DNA of 64,000 nucleotides, from positions 186,001 to 250,000 of the forward strand of contig OX639991.1 in assembly GCA_951828585.1 (NCBI GenBank), read 5' to 3'. The stretch comes from Longimicrobiales bacterium. Its GTDB lineage: Bacteria > Gemmatimonadota > Gemmatimonadetes > Longimicrobiales > Gaopeijiaceae. The position numbers were made by a program, and so were the translations under genes. Below, in pieces: positions 15,247 through 26,233 of this stretch. The stretch's first letter is position 1. Each line of letters starts with the position of its first letter. Under the pieces are notes generated by a model, which was not told where the DNA came from, ran no database searches, and saw only the letters and a list, made by a program, of their open reading frames with translations.

Positions 15247-16271
15247 TACCCCCACGCGGGGACATCGCCTCGCCTGTGGCCGCGGAGTGGGCCCGGTCGC
15301 GGACCCGCGGGGAGGCACACCACGCGAAGGACCACCCCCGCGCTCTCGTGCTGGCCGACCCCGCCCCCCACCTCGCCCGCGCCCTGGAAGAATCGGGCCA
15401 CTCGGTCACCCGCTGGCACCGCTTCCTCACGCCCGGCCAGCAGTGCACCGCGTGGCCCCCGCGCGGCCCCTTCGACGAGGTCTGGGTGCGCATGCCGCGG
15501 TCCTCGCTGGAGGCCGCCATGCTCCTGCACGCCGCATCGGCCCGGGTGGAGGACGGCGCCCGCATCCATCTCTTCGGCGCCGGCGACGAAGGCATCCGCT
15601 CGGCCGCCAAGCACTTCCCGGCGGGCACCGGCGAGGTCCAAACGGCGCTGATCAAACGACGCTGCCGCGTCCTGGTCGCGGCCCGGGAGGCGTCTCCGCC
15701 CCACGCGGACGGTCTCGGCAGCTGGGAAACCCGGGTCCCCATCGACTGGGGCACCGGCGCGCGCGACTGGACCTTCTACCCCGGAGTCTTCGCCCACGGA
15801 CGGCTCGACCCGGCCACCGCCCTGCTCATCGAATGCCTCCCTCGAGTCCCGGCGGGCGCCCGCATCCTGGACTTCGGCGCGGGCACCGGTCCTCTCGCGG
15901 CGGCGGCGCTGGAACGCGGTGGCGACGGCGCCGAAGCCGTGCTCCTCGACGCGGACGCGATCTCGCTGGCCGCGGCGGCGCGGAATGTCCCGGCGGGCAA
16001 GCAGGTGCTCGGCCGCGACCTCGCCGCCGTTTCCGGCCCCTTCGACCTGATCGTCTCCAACCCCCCGATCCACACGGGCAAACCCCAAAGTTTGCGCACC
16101 GTCGAGGCGTTCATTCGGGAAGCTCCCCGGGTTCTCGCGCGGAGAGGCGAGCTCATCGTGGTGGCCCAGAGGCGGCTGCCGGTCGGAGACCTGCTGGCCC
16201 GCTCCTTCAATCGCGTTCGCACCGACGCCGACCGCGGTCCGGTTCGGGTCCGGGCGACTGTCGCCCCCTAG
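15243..16271 (+). CDS. Class I SAM methyltransferase, RsmC-like
   Basis: A 342-residue protein from GTG 15243. The N-terminal half is a weakly conserved methyltransferase-like domain. The C-terminal half has motif I ILDFGAGTGPLA and the catalytic NPPIHTGK, as in RsmC/RlmG rRNA guanine-N2 methyltransferases, which have this duplicated two-domain layout. The likely target is 16S rRNA G1207, but the N-domain is divergent, so the substrate is provisional. It is translationally coupled to cls, and the stop codon abuts the first copy of the intergenic repeat. Confidence 0.78.
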   Translation: MIPPRGDIASPVAAEWARSRTRGEAHHAKDHPRALVLADPAPHLARALEESGHSVTRWHRFLTPGQQCTAWPPRGPFDEVWVRMPRSSLEAAMLLHAASARVEDGARIHLFGAGDEGIRSAAKHFPAGTGEVQTALIKRRCRVLVAAREASPPHADGLGSWETRVPIDWGTGARDWTFYPGVFAHGRLDPATALLIECLPRVPAGARILDFGAGTGPLAAAALERGGDGAEAVLLDADAISLAAAARNVPAGKQVLGRDLAAVSGPFDLIVSNPPIHTGKPQSLRTVEAFIREAPRVLARRGELIVVAQRRLPVGDLLARSFNRVRTDADRGPVRVRATVAP

Positions 16272-16690
16272 CAGCCCGTGGATAGAGCCGCCCGAGTACC
16301 GAGAGCGGCGAGGCGCCGGGCTGGCAAGGCGCGACGAGAGGTGAATAGCACCGCTATTCGCCCGAGGAGCAACGTAGAGCGCAGCGGCCCAGCCCGGATG
16401 CATCGCCGGTCGAATGCCGGGAGGGTTTGTCCGCGGGCTGCCCAGCCCGTGGATAGAGCCGCCCGAGTACCGAGAGCGGCGAGGCGCCGGGCTGGCAAGG
16501 CGCGACGAGAGGGGAATAGCAGAGCTATTCGCCCGAGGAGCAACGCAGAGCGAAGCCGCGAACGAGCAAGAAAGTATGGTAAACATGACATTTGATAAAG
16601 TGAAGTTTACAGAGTGACCAGTTCGAGCGAAGCGGTCCAGCGCGGATGCATCGCCGCTCGAATGCCGGGGGGATTTTGTCCACGGACTGC
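16271..16690. repeat. Two copies of an intergenic repeat family
   Basis: Two tandem copies (16271 to about 16440, and 16441 to 16690) begin GCAGCCCGTGGATAGAG and end in TCC(A/G)CGG(A/G)CTGC, so each unit is bounded by inverted ends. Both contain a GAATAGC/GCTATTC hairpin. The second copy carries an AT-rich core (about 16575-16615) that the first lacks. The same family recurs at 21149-21894 and in miniature at 26174-26233. No coding role is evident. Confidence 0.85.
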
Positions 16691-16809
16691 TAGCCCGAAG
16701 TTCTGCCCCGAACGGGGCTGATTTCGGGCCGTAACCCGGTGTGGGGAAGGGACTTGACATGGGTTCGGGTTTGGGCTATGTGTACCCATGTAATGGAGAT
16801 GCTATTCTA

Positions 16810-16838
16810 TTGACATAATGTCGTTTAGCTGTTACGAT
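16810..16838 (+). promoter_or_regulatory. Transposase promoter
   Basis: TTGACA (16810-16815) is followed after 17 bases by TACGAT (16833-16838), close to the sigma70 consensus. Transcription would begin at about 16845, essentially on the ATG at 16846, so the mRNA would be leaderless. Confidence 0.65.
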
Positions 16839-16845
16839 TGAAGCC

Positions 16846-18573
16846 ATGTATATCGAACGCGTGCCCAACCGGAAGTCCCCGCCCGCCGTGCTCCTGCGCG
16901 AATCCTACCGCGAAGGCGGCAAGGTCAGGAAGCGCACCCTGGCCAACCTGTCGAAGTGGCCCGACGAACTCGTCCGGGGGCTCCGCGTCCTGCTCAAGGG
17001 AGGCGTGGCCCTGAAGTCCATGGACGACGCCTTCGAGATCCTGCGCTCCCGCCCCCACGGGCATGTCGCCGCCGTGCTGGGGACGGCCCGCAAGCTCGGC
17101 CTCGAGAGACTGCTCGACCGCCGTCCGTCGCGGATGCGGTCGCTCGCGCTGGCGATGATCGCCGGGCGCGTGCTCGACCCCCGCTCGAAGCTCGCCGCCG
17201 CCCGCGGCCTCGGCTCCGAGACCCGGACCGACACGCTGGGCGAGGAGACCGGCGCGGCGGACGCGACGGCCGAGGAGCTGTACGAGGCGATGGACTGGCT
17301 GCTGCGGCGCCAAAAGCGCATCGAGCGAACTCTGGCGGCGAAGCGCATCGAGGACGGCTCGCTCGTGCTGTGCGACCTGACTTCGGTGTACTTCGAGGGC
17401 TCCAAGTGCCCCTTGGCCAAGCGCGGCTACTCCCGCGACGGCAAGCGCGGCAAGCTCCAGATCGTCTTCGCGCTGCTCTGCGACCGGGAGGGTTGTCCGG
17501 TGGCCGCCGAGGTCTTTCGCGGCAACACCGCCGATCCCGGCGCCGTGGCCGACCAGGCCGACAAGCTGCGCCGGCGCTTCTCGCTGTCGCGCGTCGTGCT
17601 GGTGGGGGACCGGGGATTGCTGACCGACGCCCGCATCCGCGAGGACCTCTCTCCGGCGGGGCTGCGGTGGATCACCGCGCTCCGGGCCCCGAAGATCCGC
17701 AAGCTGGTCTCCGGAGGCGACTTGCAGCTGTCGGTCTTCGACGAGCGGGACCTCGCGGAGATCTCCGCGCCCGAGCTCTACCCGGGCGAGCGGCTCGTCG
17801 TCTGCCGCAACCCGCTGCTCGCCGCCGAGCGGGCCCGCAAGCGCGAGGCGCTGCTGCGGGCCACGGAGGCGAAGCTCGACCTGGTCGCGCGGGCCACGAA
17901 GCGCGAGAACCGTCCGCTGCGGGGCGAGAAGAACATCGCCGTGCGCGCCGACCGGGCCCTGCGCGCCCACAAGGTCGGCAAGCACTTCATGACCGCCGCG
18001 ACCGACGACGGCTTCTCGTACGAGCGCGACGAGGAGAAGATCGCCGAGGAGGCCGCGCTGGACGGCATCTACGTGATCCGCACCAACGTGCCCGACACGG
18101 AGATCGGACCCGAGGACGCGGTGCGGGCCTACAAGAGCCTCGGCCGGGTCGAGCGCGCCTTCCGGAGCCTCAAGGGCGTGGATCTCAAGGTGCGCCCCGT
18201 CCACCACCGCCTCGAAGACCGCGTCCGCGCCCACGTCTTCCTCTGCATGCTCGCCTACCACGTCGAGTGGCACATGCGGCGCGCCCTGGCGCCCATGCTC
18301 TTCGACGACGACGACCCGGCCGCCGCCGAGGCCGCCCGCGCCTCACCCGTCGCGCCCGCGCGGCGCTCCCCGTCGGCGCGCGCCAAGGCGGGCGGGAAAC
18401 GCACCCCCGACGGCCTGCCCGTCCACAGCTTCCAGACCCTGCTCGGCGATCTCGCCACCCTGACCCGCAACCGCGTGCGGCCCGCCGTCCCCGGCGCCAT
18501 GACCGCCGACATCCTCGCCCGCCCCACGCCGCTCCAGGCCAAGGCCTTCCGTCTCCTCGGCGTCCGCCCATGA
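16846..18573 (+). CDS. IS1634-family DDE transposase
   Basis: A 575-residue transposase. The DDE residues are visible in LCDLTSVYFEG, VLVGDRGLLTD and VERAFRSLKGVDLKVRPV, in the order and spacing of the IS1634 (IS4-superfamily) group. The C-terminal MLAYHVEWHMRR is also typical. It is full length without frame breaks. There is no Shine-Dalgarno upstream; the start is placed at the predicted transcription start. Confidence 0.92.
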   Translation: MYIERVPNRKSPPAVLLRESYREGGKVRKRTLANLSKWPDELVRGLRVLLKGGVALKSMDDAFEILRSRPHGHVAAVLGTARKLGLERLLDRRPSRMRSLALAMIAGRVLDPRSKLAAARGLGSETRTDTLGEETGAADATAEELYEAMDWLLRRQKRIERTLAAKRIEDGSLVLCDLTSVYFEGSKCPLAKRGYSRDGKRGKLQIVFALLCDREGCPVAAEVFRGNTADPGAVADQADKLRRRFSLSRVVLVGDRGLLTDARIREDLSPAGLRWITALRAPKIRKLVSGGDLQLSVFDERDLAEISAPELYPGERLVVCRNPLLAAERARKREALLRATEAKLDLVARATKRENRPLRGEKNIAVRADRALRAHKVGKHFMTAATDDGFSYERDEEKIAEEAALDGIYVIRTNVPDTEIGPEDAVRAYKSLGRVERAFRSLKGVDLKVRPVHHRLEDRVRAHVFLCMLAYHVEWHMRRALAPMLFDDDDPAAAEAARASPVAPARRSPSARAKAGGKRTPDGLPVHSFQTLLGDLATLTRNRVRPAVPGAMTADILARPTPLQAKAFRLLGVRP

Positions 18574-18660
18574 CCCGTACCCAGTAGCGTACACTCCCCC
18601 AATCGCACTATGTCACTGCGCCGCAATCACTTGCCCGATTCACAGCCGCAGAACTTCGGG

Positions 18661-18686
18661 CTAGCAGCCCGGCGCCTCGCCGCTAC
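18661..18686. repeat. Truncated intergenic repeat fragment
   Basis: CTAGCAGCCCGGCGCCTCGC joins the start of the repeat (GCAGCCC) directly to its internal GGCGCCTCGC-like part. It is a short remnant between the IS right end and the pstB stop codon. Confidence 0.55.
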
Positions 18687-19472: not shown

Positions 19473-20280
19473 AACGTCCCTCGATGTAGCCGGTGGTGCG
19501 TTCGTCCTTCACCTTGCCTTCGAAGAGGTCCTCCGTGGCGCCGATCTCCACCAGTTCACCCATCAGGAAGAACGCGGTGCGATCCGCGAGGCGCCGCGCC
19601 TGCTGTACCAGGTTGGTGACAAGCACGATGGTCAGCTCGCCGCAAAGCTCCTTGAGTACGTCCTCGATCCGCATGGTGGTGACCGGATCGATCGCGATGG
19701 AGAATTCGTCCAGGAGCAGCAACTCGGGCTCCTGCGACAGCGCGCGGGCGATCGTGAGGCGCTGCTGCTGACCCCCGGAAAGCAGGCTCCCGAGCGAATC
19801 GAGCCGGCCCTTGACCTCGTCCCAGAGGGCGGCGCGGGTCAGGCATCGCTCCACCACCTCGTCCAGTTGGGCCCTCTTGCGGATCCCGCGTAGGCGCGGG
19901 GAGAATGCGACGTTCTCGTAGACCGTCAGCGGGAGCCCCACGGGCAGCGGAAAAACGACCCCGATCCGGCTCCGGAGCGCGTACTCGTTCTGCCAGTCGT
20001 TGATGTTCTTGCCGTTGATGCTGACGCTTCCCCGCACCTCCATGCCCAGGTTGAAGGCCTCCATGCGGTTCAGCGCGCGCAGGAACGATGTCTTGCCGCT
20101 GTTGGCCGGGCCGATGATCCCGAAGATCTCGTGCCGGTAGATGTCCAGCGTCACGTCCTGCAGCGCGGTCTTGCCGTCGTAGCTGATCGACAGGTCCTGG
20201 ACCTCAATGATCGGGGCCGCGTCGTAGAGTGGGCCGACGGCTCCGTTCGCGACCTCCGCCGCCCCGTTCCCGTCTACCAC
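19465..20280 (-). CDS. pstB: Second PstB-like ATPase, degenerate Q- and H-loops
   Basis: A 271-residue ABC ATPase from GTG 20280, overlapping the pstA stop by seven bases. Walker A is GPANSGKT (57-64), the signature LSGGQQ is intact (167-172) and Walker B ends DE (191-192). The Q-loop Gln is replaced by Pro111 (VFPLPVG) and the switch His by Asn223 (VTNLVQQA). Its own nucleotide site should therefore be weak, while its signature can complete the partner's site. Both ATPases end YIEG(R)xG alike (YIEGRYG, YIEGRFG), so they are paralogues. Confidence 0.87.
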   Translation of the reverse strand: MVDGNGAAEVANGAVGPLYDAAPIIEVQDLSISYDGKTALQDVTLDIYRHEIFGIIGPANSGKTSFLRALNRMEAFNLGMEVRGSVSINGKNINDWQNEYALRSRIGVVFPLPVGLPLTVYENVAFSPRLRGIRKRAQLDEVVERCLTRAALWDEVKGRLDSLGSLLSGGQQQRLTIARALSQEPELLLLDEFSIAIDPVTTMRIEDVLKELCGELTIVLVTNLVQQARRLADRTAFFLMGELVEIGATEDLFEGKVKDERTTGYIEGRFG

Positions 20281-21143
20281 TTCTTGAGCCCCCTGAGGTA
20301 GACGCGGAAGCCGATCGAGGTCGCGTTCATGGCAAGCACGATTGCAATCAGGACCAGGGCCACGCCGAAGGTGAGCTGCTCGGGCACGTCGGTCGCCTGG
20401 GTCGCGGTGTAGTACAGATGGTACGACATGGCCATCGTCTGGTCGAAGACGCTCTCCGGCAGAAACGCCAGGAACGCGGCGGCTCCCGTGAACATGATGG
20501 GAGCGGTCTCCCCGGCCGTGCGGGAGACCTCCAGGATCACTCCGGTCAGGATTCCGGAGATGGAGTTCGGGAGAACCACCTTGCGGATCGTCTGCCAGCG
20601 CGTCGCCCCCATGTTCCAACAGGCTTCCCTGAACGCGTGGGGCACTGCCTGGAGTGACTCGCGGGTGGCCACGATGACCACCGGAAGGGTCATGATCGCC
20701 AGGGTCAGGCCCGCGGCCAGGATGGACTGCTGCATATTGAAGAAGTACACGAATGCACCGACGCCGAAGAGCGCGTGCACGATCGACGGCACCCCGGCGA
20801 GGTTGATGATGGCGAGGTTGATCGTGCGGGTGAGCAGGTTGTCCGGCGCGTATTCGCTCAGATAGAGGGCCGCGGCCACGCCGACCGGCACCGACGCCAG
20901 GAGCGCGACCACGACGAGCCAGATGGTACCCACCAGGGCGGGTAGAATTCCCCCCGCCGTCATGTTGTCCCGCGGCGCGGTGAACAGGAACTCCCAGGAG
21001 ATGGCCGGCCCGCCCTTGACGACCAGCGTGCCCACGATGATCAGCACCGGGATCACGAGAGCCACCGTCATCAGGAAGAACACGGCCTTCGCCAGACTCT
21101 GGGTGCGGTAGCTGCGCCGGTTGAGGCGGGTTGCAGTGAACAT
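20274..21143 (-). CDS. pstA: Phosphate ABC transporter permease PstA
   Basis: A 289-residue permease with six hydrophobic segments and the family's EAA-type cytoplasmic loop (HAFREACWNMGATRWQTIRK). The region after the first segment carries the PstA-like PAISWEFLFTAP. It pairs with PstC to form the membrane channel for phosphate. The ATG at 21143 lies only five bases from the 249-bp repeat array and has no recognisable Shine-Dalgarno. Initiation may depend on ribosomes finishing the frame that runs through the repeats and stops at 21146. Confidence 0.9.
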   Translation of the reverse strand: MFTATRLNRRSYRTQSLAKAVFFLMTVALVIPVLIIVGTLVVKGGPAISWEFLFTAPRDNMTAGGILPALVGTIWLVVVALLASVPVGVAAALYLSEYAPDNLLTRTINLAIINLAGVPSIVHALFGVGAFVYFFNMQQSILAAGLTLAIMTLPVVIVATRESLQAVPHAFREACWNMGATRWQTIRKVVLPNSISGILTGVILEVSRTAGETAPIMFTGAAAFLAFLPESVFDQTMAMSYHLYYTATQATDVPEQLTFGVALVLIAIVLAMNATSIGFRVYLRGLKKW

Positions 21144-21148
21144 GGCTA

Positions 21149-21894
21149 GCAGTCCGTGGACAGAGCCGCCCGAGCACCGAGAGCGGCGAGGCGCCGGGCT
21201 GGCAAGGCGCGACGAGAGGTGAATAGCAGCGCTATTCGCCCGAGGAGCAACGCAGAGCGAAGCCTGGGAAAGGCATAATGTATACTATACATGACATAAT
21301 GTAAATTATCATTTACACTATAGACAAGCCAAGCGAAGCGTCCAGCACGGATGCATCGCCGTTCGAATGCCGGGGGGATTCTGTCCACGGGCTGCCCGCA
21401 GTCCGTGGACAGAGCCGCCCGAGCACCGAGAGCGGCGAGGCGCCGGGCTGGCAAGGCGCGACGAGAGGTGAATAGCAGCGCTATTCGCCCGAGGAGCAAC
21501 GCAGAGCGAAGCCTGGGAAAGGCATAATGTATACTATACATGACATAATGTAAATTATCATTTACACTATAGACAAGCCAAGCGAAGCGTCCAGCACGGA
21601 TGCATCGCCGTTCGAATGCCGGGGGGATTCTGTCCACGGGCTGCCCGCAGTCCGTGGACAGAGCCGCCCGAGCACCGAGAGCGGCGAGGCGCCGGGCTGG
21701 CAAGGCGCGACGAGAGGTGAATAGCAGCGCTATTCGCCCGAGGAGCAACGCAGAGCGAAGCCTGGGAAAGGCATAATGTATACTATACATGACATAATGT
21801 AAATTATCATTTACACTATAGACAAGCCAAGCGAAGCGTCCAGCACGGATGCATCGCCGTTCGAATGCCGGGGGGATTCTGTCCACGGGCTGCC
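21149..21894. repeat. Three tandem 249-bp intergenic repeats inside the pst operon
   Basis: Units start at 21149, 21398 and 21647, identical by eye. Each opens GCAGTCCGTGGACAGA and closes with its near-inverse TCTGTCCACGGGCTGC, has a GAATAGC/GCTATTC hairpin, and an AT-rich core containing ATTATCATTTACACTAT (first copy 21305-21321). The array fills the whole space between the pstC stop and the pstA start. As 249 is 83 codons, a minus-strand frame stays open from 21886 to TAG at 21146. I treat it as non-coding repeat DNA. Confidence 0.92.
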
Positions 21895-22826
21895 TACTTT
21901 TTCCGGATTCCGCGGACCACGATGTCCGCGGTGAGGTTGATGACGAAGGTGACGACGAAGAGGAGGATGCCCAGCGCGAAGAGAGAGCCGTAGTGATTCC
22001 CGCCCTGCACCGTGTCCCCGAGTTCGGCCGCGATCGTGGCCGTCAGTGCCCGCACCGAATCAAACGGGCTCGTGGGAAGGTTGATGGCGTGCCCCGAAGC
22101 CATGAGCACGGCCATCGTTTCCCCGAATCCCCTCCCCACCCCCAACAGCACCGCCGCAAGCAGCCCGTTCTTGCTGGCCGGGATCACCACCTTGACGATC
22201 ACCTCCCACCGCGTCGCCCCCAGGGCCTCCGCCGCCTCCCGGTACGTATCCGGCACCGCCTTGAGCGCGTCCTCCGCAATCGTGGTCATGATCGGCGCCG
22301 CCATCAGCCCCAGAATGAGCCCGGCGTTCAGCACGGTCAGCCCCACCGGAACATCGAAGATCTGGATGATCAGGGGGTTCATGATCGACATCCCGACGAA
22401 GCCCCAGACCACCGACGGGATGGCCGCGAGCATCTCCACCAGGATCTTCAGCGTCTCGCGCGTCTTGCCGGTGGCGAACTCCGCGATGAAGAGCGCCGCG
22501 CCCAGCGACAGGGGCACCGACAGCAGCATCGCGAAGCCCGTCACGCTCGCGGTCCCGACGATGAGCGCCAGCGCCCCGTAGGTCGGGTTGTTCGACGTGG
22601 GCCGCCACGCAATCGAGGTGAAGAACTCTCCCAGATTCAATGGCCCGATGACGAAGTCCAGACCCTCCTTGGTGACAAAGACGAAGATCCCGACGATGAA
22701 TACAATCGCCGAGATGCCCCCGATGAACACGAGAATCCGGGCGGCCCGGTCCACGTACCAGGCCATGTCCCTGCGATCCATCGCACCGGGATGCGCCACG
22801 GCGCCGGGACTATCCGCCGGAGTCAC
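21894..22826 (-). CDS. pstC: Phosphate ABC transporter permease PstC
   Basis: A 310-residue permease with about six membrane segments and the EAA loop YREAAEALGATRWEVIVKV. The order phoU-pstC-pstA-pstB-pstB and the family motif PSVVWGF support PstC. Its start overlaps the phoU-fusion stop by four bases; its stop codon shares its last base with the repeat array. It forms the channel with PstA. Confidence 0.9.
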   Translation of the reverse strand: MTPADSPGAVAHPGAMDRRDMAWYVDRAARILVFIGGISAIVFIVGIFVFVTKEGLDFVIGPLNLGEFFTSIAWRPTSNNPTYGALALIVGTASVTGFAMLLSVPLSLGAALFIAEFATGKTRETLKILVEMLAAIPSVVWGFVGMSIMNPLIIQIFDVPVGLTVLNAGLILGLMAAPIMTTIAEDALKAVPDTYREAAEALGATRWEVIVKVVIPASKNGLLAAVLLGVGRGFGETMAVLMASGHAINLPTSPFDSVRALTATIAAELGDTVQGGNHYGSLFALGILLFVVTFVINLTADIVVRGIRKK

Positions 22827-26173: not shown

Positions 26174-26233
26174 GGCAGCCCGTGGAAGAACACTCGGCTG
26201 ACGCTCTCGAGGCCCATTCTTCCACGGGCTGCC
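26174..26233. repeat. Miniature repeat with perfect 16-bp inverted ends
   Basis: GGCAGCCCGTGGAAGA (26174-26189) and its exact inverse (26218-26233) flank 28 bases. The ends match those of the larger intergenic repeats, so this is a minimal family member. It may also fold as a terminator downstream of the flotillin gene. Confidence 0.75.

What the first reader, a model, noticed from the sequence alone, without database searches (positions are those of the whole stretch)
21149..21894. Three identical 249-bp repeats fill the pstC-pstA junction and keep an 83-codon frame open
The array begins and ends exactly at the flanking genes. Its period is a multiple of three, so a minus-strand frame runs from 21886 through all three units to a TAG two bases before the pstA ATG. 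pstA has no visible Shine-Dalgarno, so reading through the repeats may feed ribosomes to pstA, and copy number could tune PstA:PstC ratio.
Basis: partly seen in the sequence, partly recalled or inferred. Interest (0 to 1): 0.7.

Follow-up and report, generated by a model that had tools for sequence, protein, structure and literature searches.

The report
Mobile palindromic repeat inside phosphate operon
Three identical copies of a small transposon that lacks its own transposase (a MITE-like palindromic repeat found dozens to hundreds of times per genome in a genus of sponge-associated Gemmatimonadota) have landed on the stop codon of pstC, and the family as a whole sits in operons in one preferred orientation with a reading frame kept open, so the idea that ribosomes pass through it is plausible but unproven.

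Summary
In detail: 3 x 249 bp, identical, filling the pstC-pstA gap, one minus-strand frame open throughout. But it is not a pst-specific device. Each unit is a copy of a dispersed palindromic transposable element (ends RCAGYCCGTGGACA, TA duplication in a YTAR/CTAG target, no transposase), with at least 66 matches in this genome and matches in all 22 congeneric genomes searched. Relatives have the same junction empty (TAG-CCC-ATG), with one unit, or with remnants. The insertion hit the TA of pstC's TAG stop; the element's first base rebuilds that stop and the duplicated TAG stands before pstA. That partly supports ribosome passage, but intact frames are not enriched in operonic copies (36/43 versus 70/89), and a rival exists: the antisense-orientation RNA folds 25 kcal/mol more tightly. 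Copy-number tuning of PstA:PstC is untested. Verdict: a new MITE family of ERIC/YPAL/Chunjie type; the operon-sense bias is the interesting part.

The parts
21648..21892 (-). element copy 1 in transcription order (CAG...CTG, 245 bp), next to pstC
21399..21643 (-). element copy 2 (245 bp)
21150..21394 (-). element copy 3 (245 bp), next to pstA
21644..21647 (-). 4-bp linker CGGG between copies 1 and 2 (same linker as in the 174-bp array of L147)
21395..21398 (-). 4-bp linker CGGG between copies 2 and 3
21894..21896 (-). pstC stop codon TAG; its TA is one half of the target duplication
21146..21148 (-). second TAG (other half of the TA duplication plus the old third stop base), stop codon of the repeat frame, 2 nt before the pstA ATG
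21146..21886 (-). open frame through all three units (GTG start 7 nt after the pstC stop; 246 aa)
21274..21325 (.). AT-rich variable core of the unit with several dyads (repeated at +249 and +498)
21894..22826 (-). pstC (upstream permease gene)
20274..21143 (-). pstA (downstream permease gene)
16272..16440 (-). short-class copy (169 bp) of the same family
16443..16689 (-). long-class copy (247 bp) of the same family, tandem to the short one
26176..26231 (.). 56-bp mini copy (ends only)

Best explanation
Shown: each 249-bp unit is one insertion quantum of a non-autonomous transposable element (245-bp CAG...CTG body, one terminal R/Y base on each side, TA target duplication; 249 = 83 codons). 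One copy entered the TA of the pstC stop codon TAG; the element's terminal G completes the upstream TAG, and the duplicated TAG ends up in front of pstA at about the old spacing. Inferred: the copy was then amplified in place to three identical units. Shown for the family: co-directional (operon) junctions are preferred, TAG stops are over-used as targets, and in operons the element lies mostly with the same strand in sense. Inferred: orientation is filtered after insertion, because only in this orientation is a frame open from a GTG 6-7 nt behind the upstream stop to a stop beside the downstream start. Ribosomes that re-initiate at the GTG can cross the element, protect the mRNA from polarity and hand over to the next gene (here pstA), which has lost the Shine-Dalgarno-like sequence it had in the pstC 3' end. 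The element is thus probably a tolerated, operon-compatible parasite rather than a dedicated pst regulator. Confidence in the mobile-element identity alone is about 0.95; in ribosome passage as the reason for the bias about 0.4.
For: Dispersed family with at least 66 matches in its own genome and matches in 22 of 22 congeners. Inverted ends and long hairpin, with compensatory changes (126 double-change cells versus 46.8 +- 5.7 shuffled). Empty, single-unit and remnant versions of the pstC-pstA junction in relatives. Flank composition symmetric (left base before TA: C>T>G>A; complement of right base after TA: C>T>G>A), so a palindromic YTAR target and no built-in insertion orientation. Fixed length 245 in 116 of 150 copies. 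Co-directional junctions 59, convergent 3, divergent 2, against 193/32/25 for gene pairs (p 0.008). Sense:antisense 50:9, deduplicated 43:9 (p 2e-6), held-out sample 14:2. Upstream stop is TAG in 30 of 39 operonic cases against 113 of 313 genes. Frame 0: 6 stops versus 31.6 +- 3.8; N/S relative to expectation 0.69 versus 1.03 and 1.12 for the other two forward frames.
Against: The intact frame is not enriched in sense-operonic copies (36/43 versus 70/89, p 0.64). Downstream genes of broken-frame copies do not have better Shine-Dalgarno sites. Frame 2 is also somewhat stop-depleted (0.64), so shared ancestry of copies inflates the frame statistic. About half of the short-class copies (169 bp) have lost frame 0. 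In the pst case the repeat frame is shifted by one against pstC, so only re-initiation, not stop readthrough, could work. No transposase with matching ends was found.
Confidence: 0.5

Rival explanations
1. Neutral parasite; the sense bias arises only because the antisense-orientation transcript is a much tighter hairpin and is purged from operons. The open frame is a by-product of the element's make-up and recent common ancestry.
For: Mean RNA folding energy -99.7 kcal/mol in the sense orientation against -124.3 in the other; intact frames not enriched in operonic copies; other frames also deviate in shuffles.
Against: Frame 0 is depleted of stops far beyond any other frame (ratio 0.19 against 0.64-1.08) and shows N/S 0.69.
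Confidence: 0.3
2. ERIC-like mRNA element: the co-transcribed hairpin sets the stability of the upstream or downstream message (RNase E/III), in an orientation-dependent way, and three copies change the pstC:pstA transcript ratio.
For: Long covarying hairpin, operon location; ERIC in Yersinia does this and orientation matters (De Gregorio 2005 as reviewed in PMC2229807).
Against: No Rfam match, no expression data; the conserved open frame is not explained.
Confidence: 0.15
3. The element carries a real small gene (about 80 aa) expressed by hitch-hiking on operons.
For: Open frame, N/S 0.69, stops avoided.
Against: No protein family above a curated cut-off; the short class deletes 25 codons or shifts frame; the right half shows no codon-position pattern.
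Confidence: 0.05
4. The AT-rich core is a promoter that compensates for lost coupling.
For: Promoter-like pairs in the core on the sense strand.
Against: Sense and antisense strands score alike (5.67 and 5.54, shuffled 5.0); the few short copies without the core at operon junctions are also in sense.
Confidence: 0.07
5. Assembly artefact that tripled one unit.
For: Units are identical.
Against: Single-contig 4.47-Mb assembly; other tandem arrays with diverged units and linkers at several loci; a relative has one unit plus a stub of a second at the same junction. The reads themselves were not available.
Confidence: 0.03

Closest known systems
ERIC / RU-1 and YPAL / RU-2 (enterobacterial small mobile palindromic repeats)
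   Same: Long-hairpin repeats of 127-168 bp with inverted ends; ERIC has TA at its ends; co-transcribed with neighbours; some carry contiguous open frames; orientation matters for the mRNA effect (PMC2229807, PMC2759123).
   Different: Different host phylum and different size classes (245 and 170). An in-operon sense bias and a rebuilt stop codon are not described in the texts read.
Chunjie MITE of Geobacter uraniireducens
   Same: 235-bp MITE with a copy inside a phosphate-uptake operon; 38 copies of 178-235 bp plus partial copies; [quoted passage not shown]).
   Different: Original paper not held, so frame, target and orientation could not be compared; no sequence comparison made.
Rickettsia palindromic elements (RPE)
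   Same: Palindromic repeats of about 150 bp with a conserved peptide frame, compatible with coding context (PMC10969869).
   Different: RPEs sit inside genes in frame; this family sits at stop codons between genes.
REP/BIME/REPIN with RAYT
   Same: Palindromic, intergenic, arrays, targeted by an IS110 element.
   Different: Units are 170-249 bp and no Y1 transposase was found in this genome.

Membership tests
bacterial MITE (non-autonomous, TIR-flanked small element) | short, multicopy, dispersed, no transposase gene | tested here: met
bacterial MITE (non-autonomous, TIR-flanked small element) | terminal inverted repeats | tested here: met
   RCAGYCCGTGGACA ... TGTCCACGGRCTGY
bacterial MITE (non-autonomous, TIR-flanked small element) | target duplication and empty sites | tested here: met
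   TA duplication; empty pstC-pstA junctions in relatives
bacterial MITE (non-autonomous, TIR-flanked small element) | ends shared with an autonomous element (a usual clue, not a strict requirement) | tested here: inconclusive
   ends not found on the IS630-type (PF13358), PF13586 or PF01609 loci examined; not every transposase family or copy was searched
ERIC | 127-bp palindrome with TA ends, enterobacteria and vibrios | tested here: not met
   size 245/170, Gemmatimonadota; TA target shared; no direct alignment to ERIC made
REP/RAYT | 20-40 bp palindromes with a Y1 transposase in the genome | tested here: not met
   no PF01797 match in own genome; units too long
known structured RNA (Rfam) | match above gathering score | tested here: not met

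The most novel reading that the evidence does not exclude
An operon-adapted transposon: a palindromic element whose length (multiple of three), terminal base (rebuilds the stop), target (TA of TAG) and open frame together let it insert between translationally coupled genes and carry ribosomes across itself, so that coupling and mRNA protection survive the insertion.
Probability: 0.3. Interest if true: 0.75.

Novelty: new member of a known kind. Interest (0 to 1): 0.5.

Why it matters
MITE-like repeats are usually thought to survive by landing where nothing is read. This family is found mostly between co-directional genes, in one orientation, with a frame kept open across about 22 species. If ribosome passage is confirmed, it would show how a parasite can colonise operons without polarity, and would give dozens of natural replicate insertions for measuring translational coupling. 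It also warns that the 80- to 246-aa hypothetical proteins predicted at such places are probably repeat frames.

Tried and rejected
REP/RAYT origin: no Y1 transposase. IS630 (PF13358) and IS5/IS4-type (PF13586, PF01609) as source: ends differ. Rfam: none. Protein function of the frame: only sub-threshold matches (DUF3938 at E 4e-4, below its cut-off; NF001279 at 14 bits for one unit against a cut-off of 282), rejected as composition matches. Promoter asymmetry: not found. A first intact-frame count with a too strict end rule suggested a Shine-Dalgarno difference; with the corrected rule it vanished. The RNAalifold consensus of the whole set was uninformative; the consensus MFE pairs were used instead. 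Viral contigs: no exact match to a 24-base conserved stretch. The pst tree does not settle whether this site was hit once and lost repeatedly or hit several times.

Full report
Observation. The window holds three units of 249 bp at 21149-21895, identical to the base apart from the last position, which is flank. They fill the gap between pstC (21894-22826, minus) and pstA (20274-21143, minus), both BPD_transp_1 permeases, in an operon with a PstS-like protein, a PhoU domain protein and ABC ATPases (PstS and the second ATPase by position and sequence only). One minus-strand frame runs from GTG 21886 through all units to TAG 21148-21146, two bases before the pstA ATG.

It is a mobile element. A search of the same 4.47-Mb single-contig genome gave 66 matches (221 candidates, 40 scored), at 83-88% identity for full-length copies elsewhere. 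All 22 congeneric genomes searched have matches; other genera of the order have few or none. The nearest named records are sponge and marine Gemmatimonadota MAGs (placement near Palauibacter is my inference). Copies have inverted ends, CAGYCCGTGGACA / TGTCCACGGRCTG, and come in two main lengths, 245 bp (116 of 150 long copies exactly 245) and 169/170 bp (core deleted), plus minis of 41-80 bp. The unit folds as one long hairpin, and its pairs show compensatory changes beyond shuffles.

Insertion site. In relatives the junction reads AAG/AAA-TAG-CCC-ATG/GTG with no element (L058, L062, L063, L067, L069), carries one unit (L057), one unit plus a 29-nt stub of a second (L054), or remnants of 7-80 nt (L055, L059, L060, L061, L064, L065, L066). 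So the array is an insertion. Flanks of 150 copies fit a YTAR/CTAG target with a TA duplication and a symmetric flank composition. Because the element begins with G (or A), TA plus G rebuilds the stop codon TAG of the upstream gene, and the other TAG ends up next to the downstream start. In pst there is one extra G, so the repeat frame is shifted by one against pstC. The three units are joined by CGGG, not by the target duplication; they probably arose by amplification in place (inference). No second tandem array of long units was seen among 150 copies, but short units form arrays with GG or CGGG linkers.

Across 73 distinct 245-bp copies the frame had 5 stops against 25.2 +- 3.3 in column shuffles, three of them at codon 1, before the GTG. 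With codon 1 left out and 113 copies: 6 against 31.6 +- 3.8, other frames 0.64-1.08 of expectation. A later set of 41 distinct copies alone gave 4 against 9.4 +- 2.0, which is weaker. Nearest-neighbour differences give N/S 0.69 of expectation in this frame, 1.03 and 1.12 in the other two forward frames; the reverse frame that shares its third positions gives 0.70 but is full of stops. I read this as moderate evidence that the frame is kept open.

Orientation. With a codon-usage score trained on 101 long ORFs, copies at co-directional gene junctions lie with the frame in sense 37:7 in the first 96 copies, 14:2 in a held-out set of copies fetched afterwards, and 43:9 overall after removing orthologous sites (p 2e-6). 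Only five copies lie at convergent or divergent junctions. The upstream stop is TAG in 30 of 39 cases against 36% of genes. Since the target is palindromic, the bias most likely arises after insertion (inference).

Mechanism. The simplest mechanism that uses all of this is ribosome passage: re-initiation at the GTG 6-7 nt behind the upstream stop, translation across the element, and termination beside the next start. Translational coupling by termination-reinitiation is an established process (PMC6728339, abstract). In pst, the insertion has removed the GGAAGAAG-like run from in front of pstA, so re-supply of ribosomes would matter there. Against it, the frame is not more often intact in sense-operonic copies than elsewhere (36/43 against 70/89), and broken copies are not rescued by better Shine-Dalgarno sites. 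A purely structural rival explains the bias: the antisense RNA folds at -124.3 against -99.7 kcal/mol. A promoter explanation is weak.

Known relatives. The element meets the working definition of a bacterial MITE except that no autonomous partner was found. It works most like ERIC and YPAL, which are co-transcribed and partly carry open frames, and Chunjie of Geobacter, which also sits in a phosphate-uptake operon. It is not a REP/RAYT system and has no Rfam match. I found no description of this family in the library, which holds only open-licence papers.

Verdict. Real, and not an ordinary tandem duplication, but a new family of a known kind. The family-wide sense bias in operons with a preserved frame is worth a test.

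Noticed in passing
L138, L141, L142, L143, L144 (own genome): An IS110-family element (PF01548/PF02371) sits at exactly the same position (TCCACG^GACTGC) inside the right end of five different copies of this repeat, as IS621 does in E. coli REP (PMC11208160). Its bridge RNA would be expected to match the repeat end.
   Followed up: partly
L149:5500-10620: A roughly 5-kb island with a tyrosine recombinase (PF00589) is integrated inside one short unit of a tandem array, flanked by the 12-bp direct repeat TGCCAGCCCGGC: the repeat may serve as its attachment site.
   Followed up: partly
window 16693-18665: A DDE_Tnp_1 insertion sequence with ends CCCGAAGTTCTGC sits in the CTAG at the end of a repeat unit, with CTAG on both sides; a fragment of another repeat follows at 18666.
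   Followed up: partly
L147, L148, L149, L150, L151, window 16271-16690: Tandem arrays of short units joined by fixed linkers (CGGG or GG) that are not the target duplication, which hints at circle or rolling amplification rather than repeated insertion.
   Followed up: no
unit core, e.g. window 21274-21325: The AT-rich core holds dyads (CATKACATTATGTMATG, ATGTATACTATACAT); GACATAATG also occurs upstream of the window transposase at about 16812 and of a DDE_3 transposase in L155. Possible shared regulator site.
   Followed up: no
L051-L070 pstC-pstA junctions: Filled, stub and empty junctions are scattered over the pst tree, so this stop codon is either a repeated target or repeatedly cleaned out.
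   Followed up: partly
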